DNA of 43,512 nt, taken from positions 1 to 43,512 of the forward strand of contig JAFSFT010000067.1 in NCBI GenBank assembly GCA_017435045.1. Direction: 5' to 3'. Shown one piece after another: positions 6,655 to 37,083 of this stretch (position 1 is its first letter; every line of letters begins with the position of its first letter). The notes beneath the pieces were generated by a model, which was given only the letters and a program-made list of their open reading frames with translations, was not told the DNA's origin and did not search any database. Source of the stretch: Oscillospiraceae bacterium. Lineage in GTDB: Bacteria; Bacillota; Clostridia; Oscillospirales; Ruminococcaceae. Position numbers and translations under genes: made by a program.

Positions 6655-8043
6655 TTATTTTTTGTCTTTGAAATAATCCTTTGTCATGCTGCATACAACA
6701 CCGGAGAGGAGAAGAAGAGCAATCAAGTTAGGGATAGCCATCATACCGTTGAGGGTGTCGGAAATATCCCACATCAGTGTACCGCTGCCTGTTGCACCAA
6801 CCACGCAAACTGCAATAAAGATAACTTTATAGATTTTGTCAAAGAGTTTGTTGTTGTTTGTAAGATAACCCCAGCAGCGTTCGCCGTAATAGGCCCAGCT
6901 GAGAATTGTGGAAAGGGCAAAGAACAGAAGGCTTATCTGAATAATAAGGCCGCCAAGAGTGCCAGGAAGCACAGAGTTGAAAGCATAAACTGCCGCTGCA
7001 CCTTTGGATGCGTATGCACCAAGAGCTTCGGAACCCAGTTCGATACCGGAAAGCAGAACTGTGAAAGCAGTGATGGAACAGATAACGATTGTGTCGATAA
7101 ATACTTCAAAAACACCCCAGATTGCCTGTTTGCAAGGATCTTTTTCGGAGGATGCTGCGTGAGCGATAGGTGCGGAACCAAGACCTGCTTCATTGGAGAA
7201 AACGCCGCGTGCAAAGCCCTGTTTCATAGCAACCATAATTGCATAGCCGAATACGCCGCCGCCAACAGCTTCAAAGCTGAAAGCAGATGTAATGATATTG
7301 AGCAGAACAGCAGGAATGTCGCCGATACGCATTATAATAACAATAATACCTGCAGCAATATAGAAAATAGCCATAAACGGAACCATATAGCTGGTAACCT
7401 GACCGATTCTCTGTACACCGCCGATAGTAACAAATGCCACAACGATAGCAAGCATGATACCTGTAATAAGAGGATTGAGGCCAACAAGCCCTTTCATAGC
7501 ACCTGCAATTTCACTTGCCTGAGCAATGTTACCGATACCGAAAGATGCAAGACCGCCAAGAATTGCAAAGATAACAGCCAGCCATTTCCAGTTTTTGCCA
7601 AGACCGTTTTCTATGTAGTACATAGGGCCGCCCTTGTGAACGCCTTTTTCGTCTGTGATACGGTATTTCATAGCCAATGCAATTTCTGCATATTTTGTAC
7701 ACATACCGAAGAATGCACTTACCCACATCCAGAATACTGCACCAGGCCCACCAACGAAGATAGCACCGGTAACACCTGCAACGTTGCCTGTACCTACTGT
7801 ACCTGCAAGAGCTGTTGTAACAGCCTGAAAAGGTGTAAGGTTGCTGCCGCGGTCTTCATCCTTTTTGTCTTTTGCAAACAGGCTGCCCACGGTGTTTTTC
7901 ATAATGTAACCAAACCATTTAACCTGAATAAATCCTGTTTTGATTGTAAGATAGATACCTGTACCAACCAGAAGAGTAAGCATTACAGGACCCCAGACAA
8001 AACTGTTGATAGTGCCATTGATACTTGTGATGATTTCTAACAT
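6655..8043 (-). CDS. Alanine/glycine:cation symporter (AGCS family)
   Basis: The 462-residue integral membrane protein imports alanine or glycine with sodium or protons. It begins MLEIITSINGTINSFVWGPV and shows the family hallmarks ALAGTVGTGNVAGVTGAI, GGPGAVFWMWVSAFFGMCTKYAEI, the amphipathic KGGPMYYIENGLG, and FSNEAGLGSAPIAHAA. About ten to eleven membrane spans are visible. The start at 8043 follows AAAGGAG; the upstream ATG at 8076 has no such site. A tandem glycine riboswitch precedes the gene, which makes glycine the likely substrate or signal. A second AGCS gene lies at 13235-14620 without a riboswitch. Confidence 0.95.
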   Translation of the reverse strand: MLEIITSINGTINSFVWGPVMLTLLVGTGIYLTIKTGFIQVKWFGYIMKNTVGSLFAKDKKDEDRGSNLTPFQAVTTALAGTVGTGNVAGVTGAIFVGGPGAVFWMWVSAFFGMCTKYAEIALAMKYRITDEKGVHKGGPMYYIENGLGKNWKWLAVIFAILGGLASFGIGNIAQASEIAGAMKGLVGLNPLITGIMLAIVVAFVTIGGVQRIGQVTSYMVPFMAIFYIAAGIIVIIMRIGDIPAVLLNIITSAFSFEAVGGGVFGYAIMVAMKQGFARGVFSNEAGLGSAPIAHAASSEKDPCKQAIWGVFEVFIDTIVICSITAFTVLLSGIELGSEALGAYASKGAAAVYAFNSVLPGTLGGLIIQISLLFFALSTILSWAYYGERCWGYLTNNNKLFDKIYKVIFIAVCVVGATGSGTLMWDISDTLNGMMAIPNLIALLLLSGVVCSMTKDYFKDKK

Positions 8044-8087
8044 AAAATTAATCTCCTTTGTTTTTGTTTTAAACAATCAAATATCCC

Positions 8088-8183: not shown

Positions 8184-8346
8184 TGTCTCTGTCCTTTTGC
8201 CTGAGAGATTACGATAAAATCGTTTGCACCTTCGGCCCCCGCAACAAAAAAACGGGCGTCTCCAGAGTACCATCAACCTGCAGTCCCTATGACCTGAGAG
8301 TGTTATTCCTTCGGTAGATTCAAAAATCTTTTCCTGCAGACATCAT
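8184..8346 (-). promoter_or_regulatory. Tandem glycine riboswitch (gcvT motif)
   Basis: Read on the minus strand, the leader has two aptamer-like halves. The 5' half holds ACCGAAGG followed by ACTCTCAGGTC near 8315-8290; the 3' half holds GGCCGAAGG near 8240 and the very characteristic ATCTCTCAGGCAAAAGGAC ending near 8190. These are the conserved glycine-binding segments of the gcvT RNA element. The two aptamers are joined by a short linker around GGACTGCAGG. It lies directly upstream of the AGCS symporter and of a terminator, which suggests transcriptional control of uptake by glycine. Confidence 0.92.
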
Positions 8347-13234: not shown

Positions 13235-14620
13235 TTATTTTTTACTGAAATGTTCTTTTATAAGTTTAAGAACTACTGGTGCCATAAGGAATACGGCAAT
13301 AAGGTTAGGTACAGTCATAAATCCGTTGAAAGTATCGGATATACCCCATATAAGGTCAAGACTTACTGTTGCACCAACAATGGAAATAAGGGAATATGCA
13401 ACGTAAAATATTTTTGTTATCTTGCCGCCAAATAAAAATTCAGCACAGCGTGCACCGTACAGACCCCAGCCAATGATGGTGGAGAAGGCAAAACAGCACA
13501 TTGCTACAGCGGTAAAGATAGAAACCCAGTTGCCGTATACAAGTGTAAAGCCTGCAATTGTAAGCTCTGCACCTGCTGCAACACCATATGTAATATCTAC
13601 ACCACTGAGAAGAATTACAAGCGCTGTCATTGTACAAACAACGATAGTGTCCATAAATACTTCAAAAATACCAAACATACCCTGTTTTACAGGATCGTTT
13701 GTATCAGCACAGGCATGAGCGATGGAACCTGTACCAAGACCTGCCTCGTTGGAGAAGATGCCGCGTGACACACCCTTGGTCATACTTGTGAACATGCTGC
13801 CCACAACGCCGCCTGTTACAGCCTGTGGGTTGAATGCACCTGTAAAAATACTTGCAAAAACAGCAGGGAGTTTGCCGGCATTCATTGCAATAAGGCCAAG
13901 TGCAAGCAAAACGTAAAGAAGAGCCATAAACGGAACAAGTCTTTCTGCAACACTGCCGATTCTCTTTATACCGCCAAAGAGGATAAGAAGAACAGCAAAA
14001 CAGATAACTATACCGATAAGAAGGTTAAGAACCTGAAGACTGCCGTCAGAAACTGTGCCGTAGTTGAGCAGGGCACTGTCAATAGCAGCAACAATTGTAT
14101 TAACCTGTGTGGCATTGCCTGTGCCGAATACAGCACATACGCCAAAGAAAGCATAAAGATATGCAAGCCACATCCAGTTTTTGCCAAGTCCGTTTTTGAT
14201 GTAATACATCGGACCGCCGATATATTCGCCTTTGGTGTTGCGTTCACGGAAATGTACTGCAAGTGTAACTTCGCTGAACTTTGTACACATGCCAAGAAGT
14301 GCAGAAATCCACATCCAGAAAACAGCGCCAGGACCGCCTATTGCTATAGCACCTGCAACACCTGCTATATTACCAGTACCGATGGTTGCCGCCAAAGCGG
14401 TACATACAGCCTGAAAAGGAGTGATGGAGCCTGCTTCTGCAGAAGATTTATTGAAAATTTTGCCCACAGTATTTTTTAAGGCATAAGGAAATTTTCTGAT
14501 CTGAATAAATTTTGTACGGATACTGAGATAAAGTCCCACACCGATAATGCAAACCATTGCAGGAACACCCCAGATAAATCCGTTTAAAACATCATTGATA
14601 GATTTAATTGTTTCGTACAT
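13235..14620 (-). CDS. Second alanine/glycine:cation symporter (AGCS family)
   Basis: The 461-residue protein has the same architecture as the product of 6655-8043 and the same family hallmarks (ALAATIGTGNIAGVAGAI, GGPGAVFWMWISALLGMCTK, GGPMYYIKNGLG, FSNEAGLGTGSIAHAC). The two differ widely in their C-terminal halves, so they are paralogues, not a recent copy. It should import a small neutral amino acid with a cation. An AAGAGGG precedes the ATG. Unlike the first copy it has a short leader without a riboswitch, so the two systems are regulated differently. Confidence 0.94.
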   Translation of the reverse strand: MYETIKSINDVLNGFIWGVPAMVCIIGVGLYLSIRTKFIQIRKFPYALKNTVGKIFNKSSAEAGSITPFQAVCTALAATIGTGNIAGVAGAIAIGGPGAVFWMWISALLGMCTKFSEVTLAVHFRERNTKGEYIGGPMYYIKNGLGKNWMWLAYLYAFFGVCAVFGTGNATQVNTIVAAIDSALLNYGTVSDGSLQVLNLLIGIVICFAVLLILFGGIKRIGSVAERLVPFMALLYVLLALGLIAMNAGKLPAVFASIFTGAFNPQAVTGGVVGSMFTSMTKGVSRGIFSNEAGLGTGSIAHACADTNDPVKQGMFGIFEVFMDTIVVCTMTALVILLSGVDITYGVAAGAELTIAGFTLVYGNWVSIFTAVAMCCFAFSTIIGWGLYGARCAEFLFGGKITKIFYVAYSLISIVGATVSLDLIWGISDTFNGFMTVPNLIAVFLMAPVVLKLIKEHFSKK

Positions 14621-14936: not shown

Positions 14937-15692
14937 ATGATTAATCACGAGTCAAGTGTACCACTGTATATACAGCTTTCTGCAGACCTTGAAGAGTCTA
15001 TTTATAATAAAAAATATAAAGACGGAGAAAAACTTCCGTCTGAAAATCAACTGTGTCAGATGTTCAATGTAAGCAGAATCACAGTTCGTCAGGCACTTGC
15101 CAAACTGGAACAGAAAAATCTTGTATACTCTGTTCATGGCAAAGGCACTTTTGTCCGCCTTGCGGATATGTCTCAGAGTCTTGTAAAGATTACATCATTC
15201 CAGAAAACTTTGGAACAAAAGGGGCTAACCGGTTACACAGAAATAGAAGAATATACACTTAAAAGAATACCTGACTCTATTAAATCAATTTTCGGAGTTG
15301 ATAATCTCGCAAGGCTATGTCTTGTTGGTTATGCAAACGATCTTCCGCTTGTGTTCTACAATTCATATATGATAAATGTGATTGCGGCGGAAATGCTTCC
15401 TATCGCAAAAGAATGGGAGAAAGAAAAAAGGGCATTTTCCACGTGGGATATATATCCTGAAATCAGCATCAAAAAACTGCATATGGAACAAAAGCTCACA
15501 GCGGTTATAGCAGACAGCAACATCGCAAAAATTTTAAGAATTTCAAAAGGTGACCCTGTTCTCAAAATGGAAACACATGCATATTCAAACGGGGATCTGG
15601 TTGAATATAAAATTGCCTACTACCGTGCAGATAAATATGCATTTACAATAAAGCGTGAACTTGACAGAGATGTTTATGACAATAACTTCTGA
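14937..15692 (+). CDS. GntR-family transcriptional regulator with UTRA domain (HutC-like)
   Basis: The 251-residue protein has an N-terminal winged helix-turn-helix: PLYIQLSADLEESIYNKKY, GEKLPSENQLCQMFNVSR, ITVRQALAKLEQKNLVYSVH and GKGTFV, ending near residue 75. The rest is a UTRA ligand-binding domain (LVKITSFQKTLEQKGL through VLKMETHAYSNGDLVEYKIAYYRADKYAF). HutC-type regulators usually repress a catabolic operon until a small ligand binds. The gene is followed by a strong terminator and then by several inverted repeats ahead of the AtuA operon, which is the obvious target. The ligand is probably the substrate of that operon, unknown here. Confidence 0.93.
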   Translation: MINHESSVPLYIQLSADLEESIYNKKYKDGEKLPSENQLCQMFNVSRITVRQALAKLEQKNLVYSVHGKGTFVRLADMSQSLVKITSFQKTLEQKGLTGYTEIEEYTLKRIPDSIKSIFGVDNLARLCLVGYANDLPLVFYNSYMINVIAAEMLPIAKEWEKEKRAFSTWDIYPEISIKKLHMEQKLTAVIADSNIAKILRISKGDPVLKMETHAYSNGDLVEYKIAYYRADKYAFTIKRELDRDVYDNNF

Positions 15693-15730: not shown

Positions 15731-15778
15731 ACGGCATACAAACTTGTATTACAAGTTTGTATGCCGTTATTTTTTTTG
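15731..15778 (+). terminator. Terminator of the GntR gene, also carrying an operator-like palindrome
   Basis: A perfect 16-bp stem (15731-15746 with 15752-15767) is followed by a run of T. Its centre, 15742-15756, reads ACTTGTA-T-TACAAGT, a DNA palindrome that shares TTGTATT/ATACAA with the operator repeats just downstream. Confidence 0.85.
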
Positions 15779-15798: not shown

Positions 15799-15826
15799 TT
15801 AATACAAGTGACAAAGGTTGTATTAA
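15799..15826 (+). repeat. Inverted-repeat operator A (TTAATACAA-N10-TTGTATTAA)
   Basis: Two perfect nine-base arms flank ten bases. It is the first of three copies of the same 28-bp pattern between the GntR gene and the AtuA operon; its centre is 68 bp from that of copy B. A GntR-type dimer or dimer pair is the likely reader. Confidence 0.7.
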
Positions 15827-15861
15827 AACCTTTGTTTTCTGTTTGATAAAGAAAAATAAAA

Positions 15862-15899
15862 GTGTATTAATACAAGTCTGTATGCTTGTATTAATACAC
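15862..15899 (+). repeat. Inverted-repeat operator B, extended perfect copy
   Basis: Here the arms extend to 15 perfect bases (15862-15876 and 15885-15899) around an eight-base centre. The 28-bp core (15867-15894) matches copies A and C. Each arm itself contains the palindrome GTATTAATAC, so this copy could bind two dimers. Confidence 0.75.
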
Positions 15900-15933
15900 C
15901 TGATTTTTGCCCCAAAATGCAGCAAAAAAAGCG

Positions 15934-15961
15934 TTAATACAAGTTGCTGGTGTTGTAATAA
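15934..15961 (+). repeat. Inverted-repeat operator C
   Basis: TTAATACAA and TTGTAATAA flank ten bases, one mismatch from the pattern of copies A and B. Its centre is 67 bp from that of copy B and about 80 bp upstream of the operon's -35 box. Confidence 0.65.
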
Positions 15962-16040: not shown

Positions 16041-16069
16041 TTGACAAAACCTTTACATGAAGATATTAT
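16041..16069 (+). promoter_or_regulatory. Promoter of the AtuA/DUF4387 operon
   Basis: TTGACA (16041-16046) and TATTAT (16064-16069) are 17 bases apart. A perfect 12-bp palindrome, TTGTTATAACAA at 16081-16092, lies just past the expected start of transcription and is a second kind of possible operator. A strong AAGGAGG precedes the first gene. Confidence 0.75.
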
Positions 16070-16135
16070 AATGACATAACTTGTTATAACAACAAATGAC
16101 AAGACATAACGTTTCATTACAAGGAGGAATTATCT

Positions 16136-17515
16136 ATGTCAAAAGAAACCCTTAGAATCCATTGCTCAAACGGACATTTAGGATTCGCTCCAACAAAAGA
16201 AGAAAGCTTCTGGATAGGTGCAGAAACAAAACCAGACTACTACTGCTGTGACTCCGGTTCTGACGATATCGGTCCAGTGCCACTCGGTACAAACAAATGT
16301 GCTTCTCACCCTAACCACCAGAAACACGACCTTGAACTTATGCTGCTTGCATCCAGAGAACAGGGCGTACCAATGATTATCGGTTCATCCGGTGACACAG
16401 GCTCCAACGAAAAAGTTGATATGTACGTTGGCTTCATCAAAGAAATCGCTAAAAAACACAAGATGAAGAACTTCAAACTTGCATACTTCTACTCTGAAGT
16501 AGACAAAGAATACATCAGAGCAAAAATGGAAGCAGGCGACGTAATCGAAGGTCTCGACGGCAGAACAAACCTTACATTTGAAGAACTTGATGAAACAGAC
16601 AGAATCGTAGCTGTTGCAGGTGTTCATCCATTTATCAAAGCTCTTGAAATGGGCGCAGACGTAATCATCGGCGGCCGTTCCTCTGACGTAGCAGTATTCG
16701 CATCTGCATGTATCCATGAAGGCTTCCCGGAAAACATCGCATACTACTGCGGTAAAGTTCTTGAATGCTCATCCTTCTGCTGCGAACCATACGGTGCAAA
16801 AGAAACAATCATCGGTACAGTAACAAAAGACGACGTTAAAGTTACAGCAATGAGCCCATACCAGAGAGCTACACCAGCATCTGTTGCAGGCCACGCAATG
16901 TACGAAAGAACAAACCCATACTACGAATACGTAGCAGGCGGTATGATGGACATGAGTGAATGTGTATACGAACAGTTTGACGAAAAAACATGCCGTATCA
17001 CAGGCGCAAAATTCGTACCAATCGAAGGCAGAGTAAAAGTTAAACTGGAAGGTTCCGGCAAAGTTGGCGAAAGATATCTCGGTATGGCAGCAGTTCGTGA
17101 CCCATACACAATCCAGCACATTGACGAAGTTATCGACTGGGCAAAGAGCCAGGTAGAAGAAAGATTTGCAGGACAGAAATATGAACTGAGCTACAGAATC
17201 TTCGGTAAAAACGGCGTTATGGGCGAACTTGAACCAATCAAGGAAACAAAATCCCACGAACTTATGATCATCGTAGAAGGTGTTGCACCAACAGAAGAAG
17301 TAGCAGAAGAAGTAACACTTATCGGTATGAGACAGATCTTCTACGCAAGACTTCCAGAAGTTAAAGGTACAGCAGGTACAGCAGCATTCGTACTGGACGA
17401 AGTTATCAAAATCAGCCCAGCATACAAATGGACACTTGACCACACAGTTCCAGTAGACGATCCACTCGAACTGTTCCCAGTTACAATGATCGAAGTAAAC
17501 GGCGAAGAAGAATAA
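16136..17515 (+). CDS. AtuA family protein (formerly DUF1446)
   Basis: The 459-residue soluble protein belongs to the 'acyclic terpene utilization AtuA' family. Family marks are DSGSDDIGP at 39-47, MIIGSSGDTGSNEKVD, GVHPFIKALEMGADVIIGGRSSD, and a cysteine-rich YYCGKVLECSSFCCEPYG. AtuA was named from citronellol breakdown in Pseudomonas, but the reaction of the family is not established, and terpene use is not implied here. It is the first gene of an operon and is directly followed by a DUF4387 protein, its usual partner. Codon use is strongly skewed (threonine almost only ACA, proline almost only CCA), as expected for a highly expressed protein. It probably acts with DUF4387 on an organic acid, which is inference. 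Confidence 0.9.
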   Translation: MSKETLRIHCSNGHLGFAPTKEESFWIGAETKPDYYCCDSGSDDIGPVPLGTNKCASHPNHQKHDLELMLLASREQGVPMIIGSSGDTGSNEKVDMYVGFIKEIAKKHKMKNFKLAYFYSEVDKEYIRAKMEAGDVIEGLDGRTNLTFEELDETDRIVAVAGVHPFIKALEMGADVIIGGRSSDVAVFASACIHEGFPENIAYYCGKVLECSSFCCEPYGAKETIIGTVTKDDVKVTAMSPYQRATPASVAGHAMYERTNPYYEYVAGGMMDMSECVYEQFDEKTCRITGAKFVPIEGRVKVKLEGSGKVGERYLGMAAVRDPYTIQHIDEVIDWAKSQVEERFAGQKYELSYRIFGKNGVMGELEPIKETKSHELMIIVEGVAPTEEVAEEVTLIGMRQIFYARLPEVKGTAGTAAFVLDEVIKISPAYKWTLDHTVPVDDPLELFPVTMIEVNGEEE

Positions 17516-17533
17516 TATAGGAGGAGACGCACA

Positions 17534-17860
17534 ATGAAAACAGTAAAATTGGTTGACCTTGCAAAAACAATCCGTAGTAAAAATGCAGGTACAGACAGAA
17601 TTACTTTCGATATTATCTTCAGAGAAAAAGAAAAATACGAAATGGTAAAAGCATCCGGTGCTCTTACACCAGAAACAGTTAAAAAACTTTATGGTATCCC
17701 AGATGAAAGACTTGCAGCATTCGTAGAATTCGATCCAGGTCTTGCAATCAAATTCACAATCAACAGACTTAGACCATCCGGTTCCTTTGGTGAAGGCGAC
17801 ATCTTCGGTTGTCAGCAGTATGCACCACTTCTTGATGTTGAAATTCCAGTAGAAGAATAA
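17534..17860 (+). CDS. DUF4387 family protein, partner of AtuA
   Basis: The 108-residue soluble protein shows the family pattern: an N-terminal LVDLAKTIRSKNAGTDRITF, and FRPSGSFGEGDIFG-like ending (here RLRPSGSFGEGDIFGCQQYA). DUF4387 is nearly always found beside AtuA family genes, or fused to them, which argues for a two-subunit enzyme. It starts 18 bases after atuA with AGGAGG ahead, in the same codon style. No catalytic residues can be named with confidence. Confidence 0.9.
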   Translation: MKTVKLVDLAKTIRSKNAGTDRITFDIIFREKEKYEMVKASGALTPETVKKLYGIPDERLAAFVEFDPGLAIKFTINRLRPSGSFGEGDIFGCQQYAPLLDVEIPVEE

Positions 17861-17897
17861 AAGCAGGAGTAATTAAAGTTAAAAGAAGGTAGATATT

Positions 17898-19325
17898 ATG
17901 TCTATACAGTTAATAATTATTCTTGTGTATTTTGCGGCAACAGTGCTTATCGGTCTGTACGCACAGTCCAAAGCCAAAGACTCCTCCGCATTCCACGGTG
18001 CACAGCTTGGAGTGCTGATGTGTGTGGCAGCAGGCACAGGTGAATGGCTGGGCGGCACAGCAACAACAGGTGTTGCAGAATATGGTTTCGACTTTGGTAT
18101 CTCAGGTTCCTGGTACACAATTGCAAACGGTATAGGGGTTATCTTCCTTGCACTGCTCTTTGCAAAGCTGTACAGAAGTATGGAATCTGTAACAGTACCT
18201 GGCATCATCGGCAAGTTCCTTGGCGTAAAGGCAAGAACAGTATCCAGCGTGTTCCTTACATTTGTAATGATTGCAGTTGGTATCTCACAGATGATCGCAG
18301 CAGGCAGCCTGGGCGTTTCACTTATCGGTCTGGACTTTAATGTAACCGTAGTTGTTTTTGCGATAGTATTTATCGTTTACACCCTTGCAGGTGGCATGCA
18401 GGCAGTTGCATACACAAACATTATGCATCTTATCTTCATGTATGGCGGCGTTATCCTTGCAATCTTCCTTGCACTTGGTCAGGTAGGCGGTATGGAAGGT
18501 CTTAAAACAGCACTTCCTGATACATACTTCAACATGACAAGTATCGGTATGCCAAAGGTATCCAGCTGGGTAATCGCATCCCTTTTGGGTGCATGTACAG
18601 CACAGGCAGGTATCCAGCCGATCCTTGCAGCAAAAAATGAAAATGTTGCAAAAACATCAGCAATCATTACAGCATTTGTAGCAGCTCCATTTGGTCTGTT
18701 CACAGCAATGCTCGGTATGATAGCAAAATCCATGTCCCTCAACGGCACACTTACAAACACAGCAGGCGAAATCGTAACAAACGGTAAACTTGCACTTCCA
18801 ACACTTATGATGCATCTTCCACCGCTTGCAGGCGGCATCGTACTGGCAAGTATCCTTGCAGCAATCCTTTCCACAGTATCACCGCTGATTCTCGCAGCAG
18901 GCACAATGGTAACAAAGGATATCTACCAGGGAATCCTTAAGCCAAGTGCAGATGACAAGCAGGTAATGAAGATGAGCCGAATCACAACAGCGGTTTCCGG
19001 CATTCTCTGTTCAGTAGCAGCGATTGTTATGAACAGCTCAGGCATCAAGGTTCTGGACATTGTATACTTTGCATACTCAATGCGCGGCGCACTTTTCGTG
19101 GTAGTACTTCTTGGTATCTACTGGAAAAAGACGAGCGAAAAAGGTGCAGTATGGGGCATGCTGGCAACAGCAGCTGTGGGTCTGTTCTGGGTGGCATACA
19201 ACGCAATCGTTGGACACTTCCCGATCCCTGGCGTAACAGAAACATACATTTCTGTAATCACAGCACTTGTTTCCACAGTTATCTTCTCTCTTGTGTTCAA
19301 GAAAGAGAAAGAATCTGCAAAATAG
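17898..19325 (+). CDS. Sodium:solute symporter family protein (SSF)
   Basis: The 475-residue membrane protein has about 13 spans. SSF marks are GTGEWLGGTATTGVAEYGFDFG in the first two core helices, the sodium-site region TLAGGMQAVAYTNIMHLIFM, and SILAAILSTVSPLILAAGTMVTKDIY in the later core helix (the usual SASxxLLxxSS-like segment). It is expected to import an organic solute with sodium. Being the third gene after atuA and DUF4387, with a normal ribosome site, it probably brings in their substrate. The substrate class (carboxylate, amino acid or vitamin) cannot be read from sequence. Confidence 0.92.
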   Translation: MSIQLIIILVYFAATVLIGLYAQSKAKDSSAFHGAQLGVLMCVAAGTGEWLGGTATTGVAEYGFDFGISGSWYTIANGIGVIFLALLFAKLYRSMESVTVPGIIGKFLGVKARTVSSVFLTFVMIAVGISQMIAAGSLGVSLIGLDFNVTVVVFAIVFIVYTLAGGMQAVAYTNIMHLIFMYGGVILAIFLALGQVGGMEGLKTALPDTYFNMTSIGMPKVSSWVIASLLGACTAQAGIQPILAAKNENVAKTSAIITAFVAAPFGLFTAMLGMIAKSMSLNGTLTNTAGEIVTNGKLALPTLMMHLPPLAGGIVLASILAAILSTVSPLILAAGTMVTKDIYQGILKPSADDKQVMKMSRITTAVSGILCSVAAIVMNSSGIKVLDIVYFAYSMRGALFVVVLLGIYWKKTSEKGAVWGMLATAAVGLFWVAYNAIVGHFPIPGVTETYISVITALVSTVIFSLVFKKEKESAK

Positions 19326-19335
19326 CAAAACATCT

Positions 19336-19370
19336 ATGCGGGAGGCGGAATGCGCGTCCGTCTCCTGCAT
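19336..19370 (+). terminator. Strong hairpin in the middle of the operon (no T-run)
   Basis: ATGCGGGAGGCGGA (19336-19349) pairs over 14 bp (two G:U) with 19357-19370. It is followed by AACAGTAAAT, not by T residues, so it may trim or stabilise the upstream mRNA or reduce read-through without ending transcription completely. Confidence 0.5.
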
Positions 19371-19477
19371 AACAGTAAATCTGCCGGTATTTTACTGACA
19401 GAGATATTTTAAATTTTTATACTCCCCCAAAAAAGTGAGATTAAATTTTTAAAATCAATTCAGTTGTTATAAATATC

Positions 19478-19506
19478 TTGCAGTATTGCAAACGTAAATT
19501 TATACT
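19478..19506 (+). promoter_or_regulatory. Possible internal promoter ahead of the TRAP-type permease
   Basis: TTGCAG (19478-19483) and TATACT (19501-19506) are 17 bases apart in the 236-base gap 19326-19561. Together with the hairpin before it, this suggests that the last two genes can be expressed apart from the first three. Confidence 0.5.
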
Positions 19507-19561
19507 GCAGATTTTTATATATCCCACGCAAAAAAAATAAAAAAGAAGAGGAGTAAAAATT

Positions 19562-20914
19562 ATGCCTATAGAACTTATTTATCTGATAGTTTTATTAGCC
19601 GTTATCTGCTTACTGTTTATAGTTCTTAAAAGACCTATTTACGAAGCAATGTTTGTTGGCTACATCGCAATGGTAGCCTGTCTTGGTGCTTGGGGCGATT
19701 TTGGCACATATCTGCTTAAAATCTCCACAAACACACTGTTCTATGCAATTATCGCATTCTTGACAGTTGCACACATTTTCTCAACCACCGGTGTTATTGA
19801 CGACTGTATCGATGTTATCCTGTCCATCTTCGGTCGTTTCACAGGCGGTGCTGGTTACGTAGCACTTATCGGTTCCACATTCATGGGCGCTTTGTCCGGT
19901 TCCGGTGCTGGTAACGTTGCAGCAACAGGCGTTTTCACAATCCCTGCAATGAAAAAATCCGGCTTCCCACCAGAACTCGCAGCTAACGTTGAAATGTCTG
20001 CATCCACAATGGGTAATATGATCCCTCCTGCAGGCGTTATCACAGCAGCATTTGCAGCATTGGGCCTTGTATATCCAGAAACATACGATATGTCCCAGCT
20101 GTGGATGGTTATGTGGGGTATCGCACTCTGGTTCATCCTCCAGAGAGCTATCACACTCTTTGCATTCTGCAAATACTACAAAGTTAAACCAATGGATCCT
20201 GCTGATGTTCCAAAACTTGGCGCAGCACTTAAAAAAGGCTGGAAAGCTCTGCTTATCCCAGTAGTTATCTTCCTTCCATTCTGGCTTGACTCCCAGTTCA
20301 AAACAACACTCTTCAAAGACCTTATCGGTGACGGCGCAGCAGCAATGTCCAGCTGTATCCTTCTCTTTACACCAGGTCTTGCTGGTATGTATGCTCTCCT
20401 TATCTGCAAAGATAAGAAAAAAGCAAAAATTTCCAACCTTGCAAACGTTCTTTCCAACACAGTTAAAGGCATAGTTCCTGTATCTGCAACAATCTACTTT
20501 GCATACGCAATTTCTGAACTGTTCGCAGCTAAAGGCGTTGGCGATGCAATCGGCGCATGGGTACAGTCCCTTGGTTTCAGCCACCTTGCACTCGCAATCT
20601 TTATCCCACTCTTCTGTGCACTTCTCGGCATGGTTCTCCCTGGTTCTTCCCAGGTTGCAATCTTCGGTGGTATCTTTATCACTCTCTTTGCTAACTGCGG
20701 TCTTAACCCACTGCTTGCTTGTGGTATGCTCCCAGTTATCACAGGTGCTATGGAAGGTATGACACCTCCGCTTGCTCTCTGTATGTACACAGCTATGGGT
20801 ATTGCAGGCTCCGACCTCAAGAAGACAACAATGAACTGTCTCATCTGGGTAGGCTTACACTATGCACTCTCTGTAGTTTGCTTGATGGGCATTCTCCCAA
20901 TTATAGGTTTATAA
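19562..20914 (+). CDS. TRAP-type large permease (DctM-like), without a solute-binding protein
   Basis: The 450-residue membrane protein has about 11-12 spans. The segment SGSGAGNVAATGVFTIPAMK, then FPPELAANVEMSASTMGNMIPP, is the conserved core of TRAP permease subunits, and a second pseudo-repeat near the C-terminus reads MVLPGSSQVAIFGGIF and GAMEGMTPPLALCMYTAMG. TRAP transporters use sodium gradients and need a periplasmic or lipoprotein binding protein plus a small four-helix subunit. Neither is present; the next gene encodes a protein with only two spans. Strong codon skew indicates high expression. It may exchange substrate and product or form a binding-protein-independent system. Confidence 0.82.
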   Translation: MPIELIYLIVLLAVICLLFIVLKRPIYEAMFVGYIAMVACLGAWGDFGTYLLKISTNTLFYAIIAFLTVAHIFSTTGVIDDCIDVILSIFGRFTGGAGYVALIGSTFMGALSGSGAGNVAATGVFTIPAMKKSGFPPELAANVEMSASTMGNMIPPAGVITAAFAALGLVYPETYDMSQLWMVMWGIALWFILQRAITLFAFCKYYKVKPMDPADVPKLGAALKKGWKALLIPVVIFLPFWLDSQFKTTLFKDLIGDGAAAMSSCILLFTPGLAGMYALLICKDKKKAKISNLANVLSNTVKGIVPVSATIYFAYAISELFAAKGVGDAIGAWVQSLGFSHLALAIFIPLFCALLGMVLPGSSQVAIFGGIFITLFANCGLNPLLACGMLPVITGAMEGMTPPLALCMYTAMGIAGSDLKKTTMNCLIWVGLHYALSVVCLMGILPIIGL

Positions 20915-20936
20915 TACAGGAAAGGAGAATACAAAT

Positions 20937-21239
20937 ATGAAAGAAGCAGGAAAAGCATTAAATAAAGCATTTGGCTACATGGTATTTATCGCTCTTATGC
21001 TGGGCGGTCTGGCATTCTTCGGTTTCGTTGTAGCATTCATCCTTGGCCCAACAACAGGCGGTGCTCTCGGCGTATTTATCAAAGGCAAATACTTCCCATG
21101 GGTAATCAGATTCGGCACACTGACAATTGCAACAGGCCTTATCTCCATGTACCTCAACGGTGAAGAAGCACTGTCTCTTAAAGCTGACAAAGCTGAAGCA
21201 GAAGCAGAACTCAAAGAAATTCAGGCAAATCAGCAGTAA
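20937..21239 (+). CDS. Two-span membrane protein paired with the TRAP-type permease
   Basis: The 100-residue product has two hydrophobic spans (about residues 14-38 and 52-72) and a charged, helix-prone tail (ADKAEAEAELKEIQANQQ). It starts 22 bases after the permease with GGAGA ahead and shares its codon skew, so both are made together at high level. I do not recognise a family. Position suggests an accessory subunit that takes the place of the usual small TRAP subunit, but it has half the spans. A strong terminator follows. Confidence 0.78.
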   Translation: MKEAGKALNKAFGYMVFIALMLGGLAFFGFVVAFILGPTTGGALGVFIKGKYFPWVIRFGTLTIATGLISMYLNGEEALSLKADKAEAEAELKEIQANQQ

Positions 21240-21261: not shown

Positions 21262-21292
21262 AAAGGTCTCCCTGAAAAAGGAGACCTTTTTT
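21262..21292 (+). terminator. Terminator of the AtuA operon
   Basis: AAAGGTCTCC and GGAGACCTTT form a perfect 10-bp stem around an eight-base loop, followed by TTTT. Confidence 0.88.
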
Positions 21293-23925: not shown

Positions 23926-23939
23926 GAAACTGCAAAATA

Positions 23940-24031
23940 AATACAGGGGAGCCTGTTTGGCGGGCTGAGAAAAAGTAATCCAACTTTGACCCTTTAACCT
24001 GATGCGGATAATGCCGCCGTAGGAAGTCATA
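23940..24031 (+). promoter_or_regulatory. TPP riboswitch (THI element), first copy
   Basis: The conserved segments appear in order: CAGGGGAGC, GGGCTGAGA, GACCCTTTAACCTGAT, GGATAATGCC and CGTAGGAAGT. Thiamin pyrophosphate binding favours the terminator that follows and lowers expression of thiW-cytX. The stretch from 23931 repeats exactly 150 bases later, so this element was duplicated in tandem. Confidence 0.96.
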
Positions 24032-24046
24032 GAGCAGATTTTTTAC

Positions 24047-24081
24047 AGGAAGCATCCGCAGGGTGTTTCCTTTATTTTTTT
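24047..24081 (+). terminator. Terminator of the first TPP riboswitch
   Basis: AGGAAGCATCC and GGGTGTTTCCT form an 11-bp stem (two G:U pairs) around a three-base loop, followed by TTATTTTTTT. Confidence 0.8.
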
Positions 24082-24089
24082 GCAAAATA

Positions 24090-24181
24090 AATACAGGGGA
24101 GCTTGTAAGGCAGGCTGAGAAAAAGTAATCCAACTTTGACCCTTTAACCTGATACGGATAATGCCGGCGTAGGAAGTCATA
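24090..24181 (+). promoter_or_regulatory. TPP riboswitch (THI element), second copy
   Basis: It is almost identical to the first copy, with the same AAAAAGTAATCCAACTTTG core and the same conserved THI segments. Differences are confined mainly to the P3-like arm (GAGCTTGTAAGGCAGGC versus GAGCCTGTTTGGCGGGC) and single bases near 24153 and 24167. Two riboswitch-terminator units in series sharpen repression by TPP. Confidence 0.96.
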
Positions 24182-24200
24182 GCAAAGTTTGATTTTTATT

Positions 24201-35511: not shown

Positions 35512-37083
35512 ATGAAAAAATTCAGAAAACTTACATCCCTTGCACTTGCACTCGTGATGGCTTTGTCACTTGTAGCATGTGGCGGCGGTGAAATCGGTGG
35601 CGAATCTCAGCCAACAGGCGGCGAAGCAGCAGGCGTTACTGAAGACAGAATGTTCAACGTTGTTATGACAGCTGCTTACACAGGTTTTGACCCACTTAAA
35701 ACAAACGACGCAGCATCCACTTATATCACAGCACAGATCTACGAAACACTTTATCTTATTGCAGATGACGGCAGCTTTGTTCCGCTTCTTGCAGAAAGCC
35801 TCCCGGAATTCAGCGAAGACGGTCTTACAGCAACAATCAAACTTCGTGAAGGTGTTATGTTCCACGACGGCACACCATTTAACGCAGAAGCAGTTAAATA
35901 CACATTTGAACTTATCAAAGACCCTGACTTCGGTTCTGCACGTGCTTCCATTGCAGCTTCCATCGACAGCATCGAATGTCCTGATGAATACACAGTAGTA
36001 TTCCACCTCAACTACGAAGACGGTGTTCTTCTTGCTAAACTTGCACACACAAACAGCGCAATCGTTTCCCCAACAGCACAGCAGAAACAGGATTTGATGG
36101 TTGACCCTGTTGGTACAGGTCCTTACAAATATGTAAGCCACGTTTCCGGTTCCAACGTTGTTCTTACAAGAAATGACGAATACTGGGGCGAAAAAGCACA
36201 GATTAAAGATGTAACATTTACAGTTATCACAGAAGAATCCACAGCTCTTGCCCGTCTTGAAACAGGCGAAGCTGACTACATCCCATCCATCACTGTAGAA
36301 AGCCTCCCAAGAGTACAGGCAATGCAGAATGTTACAACTGAAACACAGGATTCCGCACAGATTTACTATGTTGGTCTGCGTCAGAACTCTTACATCAACC
36401 CACTGATGGCTAACAAAGACTTCAGAACAGCTATCGTTAAAGCTCTCGACAGAGAAGGCTTTGTAAACTACACAATGGAAGGCCATGGCTCCTACGCTAA
36501 ATCCTTTATCGGTCCTAAAGTTCTCGGTTACACAGAAAACGCAGAAACAGCCAACATCGGTTACGACCCAGAAGGTGCAAAAGCTATCATCGAAGCAAAT
36601 GGCTGGCAGGACGAAGAAATCGTATTTCTTTGCCCATCCACACCTGCATACGCACCAATCGGCGAATACTTCCAGGCTAACCTTACAGCAGCAGGCTTCA
36701 ACAATGTAAAACTCGAATCCATCGAATACTCCGCATACCTTACAGAATCCAAAGCAGAAAACCGCTTTGACATTTCTCTCTTTGCATGGGCAAACGTAAC
36801 ACGTGACGGTTCTGAACTTCTTGAACCAAACACACATTCCGTTTCCAGCGCAAGACTTAAAATCAACAGCGACGAGCTTGACAATATGATTCTTGCAAGT
36901 AAAACAACTTCTGTAGAAGCTGACCGTGTTGCAGCACTTGAAGAAGCAAATATGTTCCTTCTCGAAAACGCACTTATCGCTCCAATCTACAACGGCGAAT
37001 ACAGATTTGCATACAACTCTGCTTACGAATGTTCCTTGGATACAAGCAGCGTATTCTATCTCAACACATTTAAAATCAAATAA
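35512..37083 (+). CDS. Peptide ABC transporter substrate-binding lipoprotein (SBP family 5)
   Basis: The 523-residue protein is exported and lipid-anchored: its signal peptide ends in the lipobox LVAC with cysteine 23. The mature part has the family-5 pattern (FDPLKTNDAASTYITAQIYE, LREGVMFHDGTPFNAEAVKY, DPVGTGPYKYV, NDEYWGEKAQIKDVTF and KDFRTAIVKALDREGFV). It captures peptides outside the membrane for the permeases. Codon use is strongly skewed (GAA, ACA, CCA, AAA), unlike the permease genes, which fits a high copy number of binding protein. The 124-base gap before it contains a small GCCGAAAGGC hairpin, and the next gene lies behind two hairpins. Confidence 0.95.
   Translation: MKKFRKLTSLALALVMALSLVACGGGEIGGESQPTGGEAAGVTEDRMFNVVMTAAYTGFDPLKTNDAASTYITAQIYETLYLIADDGSFVPLLAESLPEFSEDGLTATIKLREGVMFHDGTPFNAEAVKYTFELIKDPDFGSARASIAASIDSIECPDEYTVVFHLNYEDGVLLAKLAHTNSAIVSPTAQQKQDLMVDPVGTGPYKYVSHVSGSNVVLTRNDEYWGEKAQIKDVTFTVITEESTALARLETGEADYIPSITVESLPRVQAMQNVTTETQDSAQIYYVGLRQNSYINPLMANKDFRTAIVKALDREGFVNYTMEGHGSYAKSFIGPKVLGYTENAETANIGYDPEGAKAIIEANGWQDEEIVFLCPSTPAYAPIGEYFQANLTAAGFNNVKLESIEYSAYLTESKAENRFDISLFAWANVTRDGSELLEPNTHSVSSARLKINSDELDNMILASKTTSVEADRVAALEEANMFLLENALIAPIYNGEYRFAYNSAYECSLDTSSVFYLNTFKIK

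What the first reader, a model, noticed from the sequence alone, without database searches (positions are those of the whole stretch)
16136..21239. AtuA-DUF4387 enzyme pair with two unrelated transporters and no other enzyme: an undescribed uptake/conversion system
The operon holds only AtuA, DUF4387, a sodium:solute symporter, a TRAP-type permease and a two-span protein. AtuA/DUF4387 has no established reaction. With no CoA transferase, dehydrogenase or aldolase nearby, the pair may carry out one step, with substrate brought in by one carrier and product exported by the other, possibly saving energy through the sodium gradient. Strong codon skew in the AtuA, DUF4387 and TRAP genes suggests high expression.
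Basis: partly seen in the sequence, partly recalled or inferred. Interest (0 to 1): 0.75.

Follow-up and report, generated by a model that had tools for sequence, protein, structure and literature searches.

The report
Uptake operon with citramalate-lyase-like enzyme
A gut bacterium carries a regulated set of genes that seems to import a small organic acid and split it with a two-part enzyme related to citramalate lyase, but from a separate branch of that family whose own fuel molecule is still unknown.

Summary
Gene content and coordinates are right: AtuA, DUF4387, a sodium:solute symporter, a TRAP-type large permease and a small membrane protein form one compact operon beside a GntR-UTRA regulator. 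The claim that AtuA/DUF4387 has no established reaction is wrong for the family. Both subunits match PDB 9erq/9evf, deposited as citramalate lyase CmlA/CmlB (E 1.9e-72 and 2.3e-21; model TM-score 0.89 to 9evf, "Citramalate lyase - ADP - pyruvate complex"), and two other family members are described as C-C lyases. The pair most likely cleaves a hydroxy acid in one step without CoA. It is probably not this organism's citramalate lyase: its clade (50 rows, 100/100 support, long stem, 32% identity to an E. coli CmlA) is distinct, and the genome has CitF-type lyase genes besides its methylaspartate cluster. Relatives of this clade sit beside glutarate genes (GlaH+LhgO in 6 of 51 loci; a less certain CoA-transferase+dehydrogenase pair in 2) and amide hydrolases, so a glutarate-related substrate or product is my leading guess. 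The import/export and sodium-energy scheme is untested, and weakened because relatives manage with either carrier alone. Strong codon bias in AtuA, DUF4387 and TRAP is confirmed.

The parts
14937..15692 (+). GntR-UTRA transcriptional regulator, likely controls the operon
   Evidence: PF00392 69.6 bits, PF07702 57.2 bits; a GntR-family match within 6 kb of AtuA in 39 of 51 loci
15731..15767 (+). terminator-like hairpin after the regulator gene (17 pairs, then T run)
15799..15944 (+). three exact TTAATACAAGT elements and an inverted copy with one mismatch, candidate regulator sites (not kept as such in relatives)
   Evidence: 6 matches with up to 1 mismatch in the window, 1.67 expected; relatives differ here
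16041..16069 (+). promoter-like site TTGACA-17-TATTAT
   Evidence: 11 of 12; such sites as a class are no more frequent than in shuffles, 15 against 17.3
16081..16092 (+). palindrome TTGTTATAACAA just downstream of the -10 site, candidate operator
   Evidence: identical in all 6 aligned loci of the genus while the leader around it varies; only exact copy in the window
16136..17515 (+). AtuA family protein, CmlA-like lyase subunit (459 aa)
   Evidence: PF07287; PDB 9erq_A E 1.9e-72; fold match 9evf_A TM 0.89/0.90
17534..17860 (+). DUF4387, CmlB-like lyase subunit (108 aa)
   Evidence: PF14330; PDB 9erq_B E 2.3e-21
17898..19325 (+). sodium:solute symporter (475 aa)
   Evidence: PF00474 168.7 bits; a homologue of at least 50% identity near AtuA in 15 of 51 loci
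19395..19423 (+). second promoter-like site before the TRAP gene (weak)
   Evidence: 10 of 12; 236-bp gap in which the scan lists no + strand terminator
19562..20914 (+). TRAP-type large permease (DctM), no DctP/DctQ gene beside it in the window
   Evidence: PF06808 173.2 bits; fold matches IseQM 9pym, SiaQM 7qha
20937..21239 (+). 100-aa small membrane protein, partner of the TRAP permease by context; number of spans not settled
   Evidence: no family above cut-off; homologue found in 25 of the 32 loci with the permease; hydropathy
21262..21289 (+). terminator-like hairpin followed by a T run
   Evidence: read by eye, not listed by the scan

Best explanation
A nutrient operon, probably under its GntR regulator. 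The sodium symporter and/or the TRAP-type permease with its small partner bring in an organic acid. The AtuA/DUF4387 pair, a CmlAB-type lyase of a separate subfamily, then splits it in one step without CoA. The general reaction, inferred from three described family members, is R1R2C(OH)-CHR3-COO- -> R1R2C=O + R3CH2-COO-. Shown here: gene order, homology, predicted fold, clade separation, codon bias, context. Inferred: lyase activity in this clade, co-transcription, regulation, direction of transport. The substrate is unknown; relatives point to glutarate as a product or close neighbour, and to a substrate that in some hosts first arrives as an amide.
For: Both subunits match CmlA/CmlB. AlphaFold model (pLDDT 86.6) has one PDB match at E<=0.001, 9evf_A. 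61 AtuA and 19 DUF4387 positions are shared by this clade and the CmlA clade. Other members are described as lyases: AtuA (passages of PMC4847356), ThnQS at a tertiary carbinol (passages of PMC12016498, which cites unpublished results). Context: GlaH+LhgO downstream of DUF4387 in 6 of 51 loci, in two different orders; CoA-transferase+acyl-CoA dehydrogenase near it in 2. GlaH is in 8 of 13 Bacillaceae-type carrier genomes against 35 of 299 genomes of the Fictibacillus order; Fisher against the 32 of 296 left after removing three known carriers: 3e-5, or 7e-4 with Thalassobacillus counted once. Amide hydrolases near AtuA: peptidase C26-like in 17 of 51, D-aminoacylase-like in 3, AAT in L047.
Against: Only 32% identity to an E. 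coli CmlA; 39 AtuA positions are fixed differently. Glutarate genes are adjacent in a minority of loci and not in the window; GlaH is absent from 5 of the 13 Bacillaceae-type carriers and from the 4 carriers tested outside Bacillaceae and Paenibacillus. Carrier genomes are not independent, and the AtuA status of the background genomes was not checked. The CoA-transferase scores below its cut-off for succinate-glutarate CoA-transferase (464 of 750 bits), and the dehydrogenase's best match is acryloyl-CoA reductase, with glutaryl-CoA dehydrogenase second, both below cut-off. No biochemical data for this clade. How CmlAB works was not read; the ADP in 9evf may mean that a nucleotide is needed.
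Confidence: 0.62

Rival explanations
1. It is this organism's citramalate lyase, serving either its own methylaspartate pathway or imported citramalate.
For: Nearest solved enzyme is citramalate lyase. The genome has a fumarase-type mesaconase candidate and methylaspartate ammonia-lyase with GlmS, MutL and MutE between them (named by eye) and no lyase beside them. AtuA/DUF4387 codon bias equals that of MutE and the ammonia-lyase.
Against: The genome also has CitF with CitE and CitD (by eye); in two genus relatives the operon continues with genes I read by eye as CitC, CitXG and a corrinoid adenosyltransferase, the classical type of citramalate or citrate lyase (recalled). AtuA and CitF occur in the same 6 of 16 genus genomes, but these are close kin. 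AtuA/DUF4387 pairs inside ammonia-lyase clusters in G063, G047, Prevotella and E. coli form another clade; G325 has such a pair too (not in the tree).
Confidence: 0.2
2. One reading: substrate in through one carrier, product out through the other, saving energy by the sodium gradient.
For: Two unrelated secondary carriers in one operon, both present in 14 of 51 loci; a lyase would release an acid that an anaerobe might excrete.
Against: Relatives with only one carrier, or only an ABC importer, are at least as common; in 12 of 13 Bacillaceae-type loci the TRAP genes stand next to an amide hydrolase gene, which looks like uptake.
Confidence: 0.15
3. The pair is not a lyase here but a different activity on the same fold (for example ATP-dependent activation of an acid).
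For: 39 fixed differences and a very long stem branch; the 9evf title names ADP.
Against: Many positions invariant in the CmlA clade are kept, a good part of them also in all 12 other AtuA rows; three branches of the family are described as lyases.
Confidence: 0.1

Closest known systems
CmlAB citramalate lyase (PDB 9erq, 9evf; close relative ECs_0760/ECs_0759 in the mal/fumD cluster of E. coli O157:H7)
   Same: two-gene AtuA + DUF4387 pair, same predicted fold (TM 0.89), shared conserved positions
   Different: 32% identity, separate clade, 39 fixed differences, own operon with a GntR gene and two transporters, not in a methylaspartate cluster
ThnQ/ThnS AtuA-like lyase of anaerobic naphthalene degraders
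   Same: AtuA-type lyase at a tertiary hydroxylated carbon, as reported in PMC12016498 (passages seen)
   Different: acts on a CoA thioester inside a long beta-oxidation-like operon; sequence not compared here
[quoted passage not shown]
   Same: same family name and lyase-type reaction as stated in PMC4847356 (passages seen)
   Different: longer protein (615 aa in Thauera), CoA substrate, terpene operon; sequence not compared here
TRAP transporters (SiaQM, IseQM)
   Same: DctM family and fold
   Different: no DctP or DctQ gene beside it in the window; a 100-aa membrane protein instead

Membership tests
AtuA/DUF4387 two-subunit lyases (CmlAB kind) | both subunits adjacent and homologous to the solved complex | tested here: met
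AtuA/DUF4387 two-subunit lyases (CmlAB kind) | same fold (AtuA subunit) | tested here: met
   9evf_A E 1.1e-52, TM 0.89/0.90, from a predicted model; DUF4387 was not modelled
AtuA/DUF4387 two-subunit lyases (CmlAB kind) | active-site residues kept | tested here: inconclusive
   61 AtuA and 19 DUF4387 positions shared with the CmlA clade, but which residues are catalytic was not looked up
AtuA/DUF4387 two-subunit lyases (CmlAB kind) | C-C lyase activity | not testable with these tools
   needs protein
citramalate lyase CmlAB proper | belongs to the clade of CmlA linked to methylaspartate ammonia-lyase | tested here: not met
   outside; own clade of 50 rows 100/100
citramalate lyase CmlAB proper | gene beside methylaspartate ammonia-lyase, glutamate mutase or mesaconase genes | tested here: not met
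   operon and flanks; the ammonia-lyase and fumarase genes are on another contig
TRAP transporter | large permease DctM | tested here: met
TRAP transporter | solute-binding protein DctP in the operon | tested here: not met
   none in the operon or the genes scanned beside it; two DctP genes elsewhere in the genome, so sharing is not excluded
TRAP transporter | small permease DctQ | tested here: inconclusive
   the 100-aa protein matches no family above cut-off (it and 17 relatives scanned)

The most novel reading that the evidence does not exclude
This subfamily is a new CoA-free lyase that releases glutarate (or another linear dicarboxylate) plus an oxo acid from a branched hydroxy acid, perhaps through an ATP/ADP-linked acyl phosphate that could conserve energy, and it is the committed step of an undescribed nutrient pathway found in gut and environmental bacteria.
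Probability: 0.25. Interest if true: 0.72.

Novelty: new variant of a known kind. Interest (0 to 1): 0.47.

Why it matters
A strongly conserved enzyme pair (AtuA at 58% identity or more in 16 of 398 genomes sampled from the window's phylum, the window's own included) with high-expression codon usage marks a nutrient that these bacteria use and for which I found no name in print (searches listed below). Linking it to citramalate lyase turns an open annotation (acyclic terpene utilisation / DUF4387) into a short list of testable acids.

Tried and rejected
Acyclic terpene use: set aside; I recognised no terpene genes in the neighbourhoods, but did not search for them systematically. The CmlAB role in glutamate fermentation: considered first because the genome has that pathway, and put second because of the CitF-type genes and the tree. 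Nicotinate, glutarimide, homoisocitrate, gamma-glutamyl compounds and 3-hydroxy-3-methylglutarate as substrates: considered from chemistry only, no gene evidence for any. Nearness to thiamine genes in the window and a few relatives: not seen in L019 or L020 of the same genus, dropped.

Paper searches: AtuA+DUF4387 (0 papers), DUF1446/DUF4387 (7), AtuA/mesaconate terms (8), citramalate lyase or DUF4387 (9), citramalate/methylaspartate since 2020 (7), 9ERQ/9EVF/CmlAB (22, 20 listed, unrelated by title), AtuA family terms (2), glutarate hydroxylase terms (11, 10 listed), ThnQ/AtuA (1), TRAP without binding protein (41, 10 listed). By title and abstract start none of those listed is about this clade, the structures, or a DctP-less TRAP; most subscription journals are not held.

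Limits: my ORF caller and contig ends hide genes, so context counts other than DUF4387 are lower bounds. Five short rows were left out of the tree. Script one search stopped with an error at L162, so of 8 fetched GlaH loci 6 were examined. In relatives I did not test TRAP neighbours for DctP.
Full report
What is there. Upstream is a GntR-UTRA regulator gene (14937-15692) followed by a strong terminator-like hairpin (15731-15767). AtuA then has a promoter-like site (16041-16069) directly followed by the palindrome TTGTTATAACAA (16081-16092). That palindrome is identical in all six genus loci aligned, although the leader around it varies. The TTAATACAAGT repeats further upstream are not kept as such in the relatives. 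Gaps inside the operon are 18, 37, 236 and 22 bp; in the 236-bp gap the scan lists no terminator on the + strand but a second promoter-like site, so partial internal transcription is possible. A hairpin with a T run, read by eye, closes the unit at about 21262-21292. Co-transcription itself was not tested.

What the enzyme pair is. Searching the PDB sequences with the window proteins gave one significant match each: 9erq_A, "Citramalate lyase, subunit A (cmlA)", E 1.9e-72, and 9erq_B, "subunit B (cmlB)", a DUF4387 protein, E 2.3e-21 (alignments). ECs_0760 of E. coli O157:H7 Sakai aligns to 9erq_A over all 456 residues at 970 bits, closely similar but not identical; it lies with its DUF4387-type partner beside methylaspartate ammonia-lyase, glutamate mutase and a fumarase gene. 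The 2015 FumD paper had noted the DUF1446 gene there as of unknown function (passages of PMC4682846). The AlphaFold model of the window AtuA (pLDDT 86.6) has one PDB match at E<=0.001: 9evf_A, titled "Citramalate lyase - ADP - pyruvate complex", TM-scores 0.89/0.90. Titles and molecule names are all I saw of these entries. [quoted passage not shown] Together these suggest one reaction type: cleavage between a carbinol carbon and the alpha carbon of a carboxylate. This generalisation is mine.

Why it is a separate branch. In a tree of 67 AtuA proteins the window row lies in a clade of 50 with 100/100 support, on a stem of 2.5 changes per column. The four CmlA-type proteins linked to methylaspartate ammonia-lyase (L069, L073, L074, L093) and one from a Klebsiella plasmid cluster that also holds a fumarase gene (L092) lie in another clade (several outgroup branches are long, the root is at the midpoint). 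61 AtuA and 19 DUF4387 positions are shared by both clades, while 39 AtuA and 4 DUF4387 positions are fixed differently (50 and 5 AtuA rows, 47 and 5 DUF4387 rows; shared or fixed means at least 95% of the window's clade and all 5 of the other). In 398 genomes of the window's phylum 97 have an AtuA match: 16, the window's own included, with a best match of 58-100% identity, 6 of 48-51%, and the rest of 39% or less. Same-family genomes G063 and G047 carry an AtuA/DUF4387 pair behind glutamate mutase and ammonia-lyase genes.

Is it this organism's citramalate lyase? The own genome (1.88 Mb, 86% complete) has methylaspartate ammonia-lyase and fumarase-type mesaconase genes about 5 kb apart on another contig, with GlmS, MutL and MutE between them (named by eye), and only one AtuA. 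But it also has CitF cut by a contig end, with CitE and CitD beside it (by eye); in two genus relatives the operon goes on with genes I read by eye as CitC, CitXG and a corrinoid adenosyltransferase. AtuA and CitF are in the same 6 of 16 genus genomes; the ammonia-lyase is over cut-off in 6, of which 5 are shared. These genomes are close kin, so this is weak, but it offers another lyase for the pathway. I give the citramalate reading 0.2.

Context of the clade. Around 50 loci from genome contigs plus the window (34 of 51 have at least 3.5 kb on both sides) DUF4387 follows AtuA in 48, the other 3 ending at the contig end. Within 6 kb are a GntR-family match in 39, the TRAP permease in 32, a recognisable small partner in 25, this SSS in 15, another SSS in 6, a peptidase C26-like protein in 17, a Dpp-type binding protein in 5. 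In the 13 Bacillaceae-type loci the TRAP gene is divergent from GntR-AtuA-DUF4387, with a C26-like gene in its operon in 12. Downstream of DUF4387, GlaH and LhgO (both over NCBIfam cut-offs for glutarate dioxygenase and L-2-hydroxyglutarate oxidase in the examples scanned) follow in 6 loci, as LhgO-GlaH in the three Bacillaceae-type loci and as GlaH-LhgO in the three Paenibacillus loci. A family III CoA-transferase and an acyl-CoA dehydrogenase lie downstream in L046 and on the divergent side in L038. The former's best NCBIfam match is succinate-glutarate CoA-transferase; the latter's is acryloyl-CoA reductase with glutaryl-CoA dehydrogenase second; all are below cut-off, so this pair is weak support. 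An L-2-hydroxyglutarate route and a glutaryl-CoA dehydrogenation route for glutarate are described in PMC5974017 (abstract start seen). GlaH is in 11 of the 20 carrier genomes tested: 8 of 13 Bacillaceae-type, 3 of 3 Paenibacillus, 0 of 4 others. It is over cut-off in 35 of 299 genomes of the Fictibacillus order (at least three of them carriers, the rest not checked for AtuA) and in 1 of 398 of the window's phylum. In six GlaH loci away from AtuA, four of them in carrier genomes, DUF3870 lies near in 6 of 6 and LhgO in 5 of 6. C26-like, D-aminoacylase-like (named by eye; amidohydrolase family below cut-off) and AAT-type hydrolases recur, so the substrate may often arrive as an amide. The window itself has neither glutarate nor amide-hydrolase genes in the operon, as expected if an anaerobe uses only the oxo-acid product or excretes the dicarboxylate; that is inference.

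Transport. The TRAP permease model (pLDDT 76.7) matches TRAP QM structures, but there is no DctP or DctQ gene beside it in the window; two DctP genes exist elsewhere in the genome. A homologue of the 100-aa protein was recognised in 25 of the 32 loci with the permease; of the other seven, L018, L026, L031 and L033 are cut by or close to a contig end and L038 has an unclassified 103-aa ORF in that place. It has no family above cut-off. Because relatives keep either carrier alone, import by both is at least as likely as import plus export.

Expression. Codon bias of AtuA and DUF4387 equals that of the ammonia-lyase and MutE and is stronger than that of CitE in the own genome or CitF in two relatives, so the pair is probably an abundant catabolic enzyme.

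Verdict. A dedicated uptake-and-cleavage operon built on a known kind of two-subunit lyase, in a subfamily for which I found no description. The chemistry class is well supported by homology, the substrate is open, and a glutarate connection is the best lead. On re-checking, the dehydrogenase's best match (acryloyl-CoA reductase) weakens that lead a little, and I lowered the novel reading from 0.28 to 0.25.

Noticed in passing
window 23935-24192 (+): Two TPP riboswitch aptamers in tandem upstream of a thiamine gene set (24417 onward; ThiM/ThiE-like by eye).
   Followed up: no
window 8187-8346 (-): Tandem glycine riboswitch aptamers just upstream of a - strand gene at about 6655-8076 that clusters with the agcS amino-acid carrier gene at 13235-14620.
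   Followed up: no
window 35512-37083 (+): Dpp-like ABC binding protein gene with strong codon bias (effective codon number 32.8); it clusters with the binding proteins next to AtuA in Paenibacillus.
   Followed up: no
window 19562-21239 and related loci: A TRAP large permease with no DctP/DctQ gene beside it in the window, accompanied by a small membrane protein in 25 of 32 loci with the permease: possibly an undescribed TRAP variant.
   Followed up: partly
plasmid loci L091, L092, L094-L101: AtuA-DUF4387 pairs occur in other catabolic contexts (TTT transporters, MmgE/PrpD, LLM oxidoreductases, citrate synthase-like gene), suggesting a family of lyases with different substrates.
   Followed up: partly
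L150-L154: An intermediate AtuA group at 48-51% identity; Dpp-type genes beside it in L152-L154 and a C26-like gene in L153 and L154.
   Followed up: no
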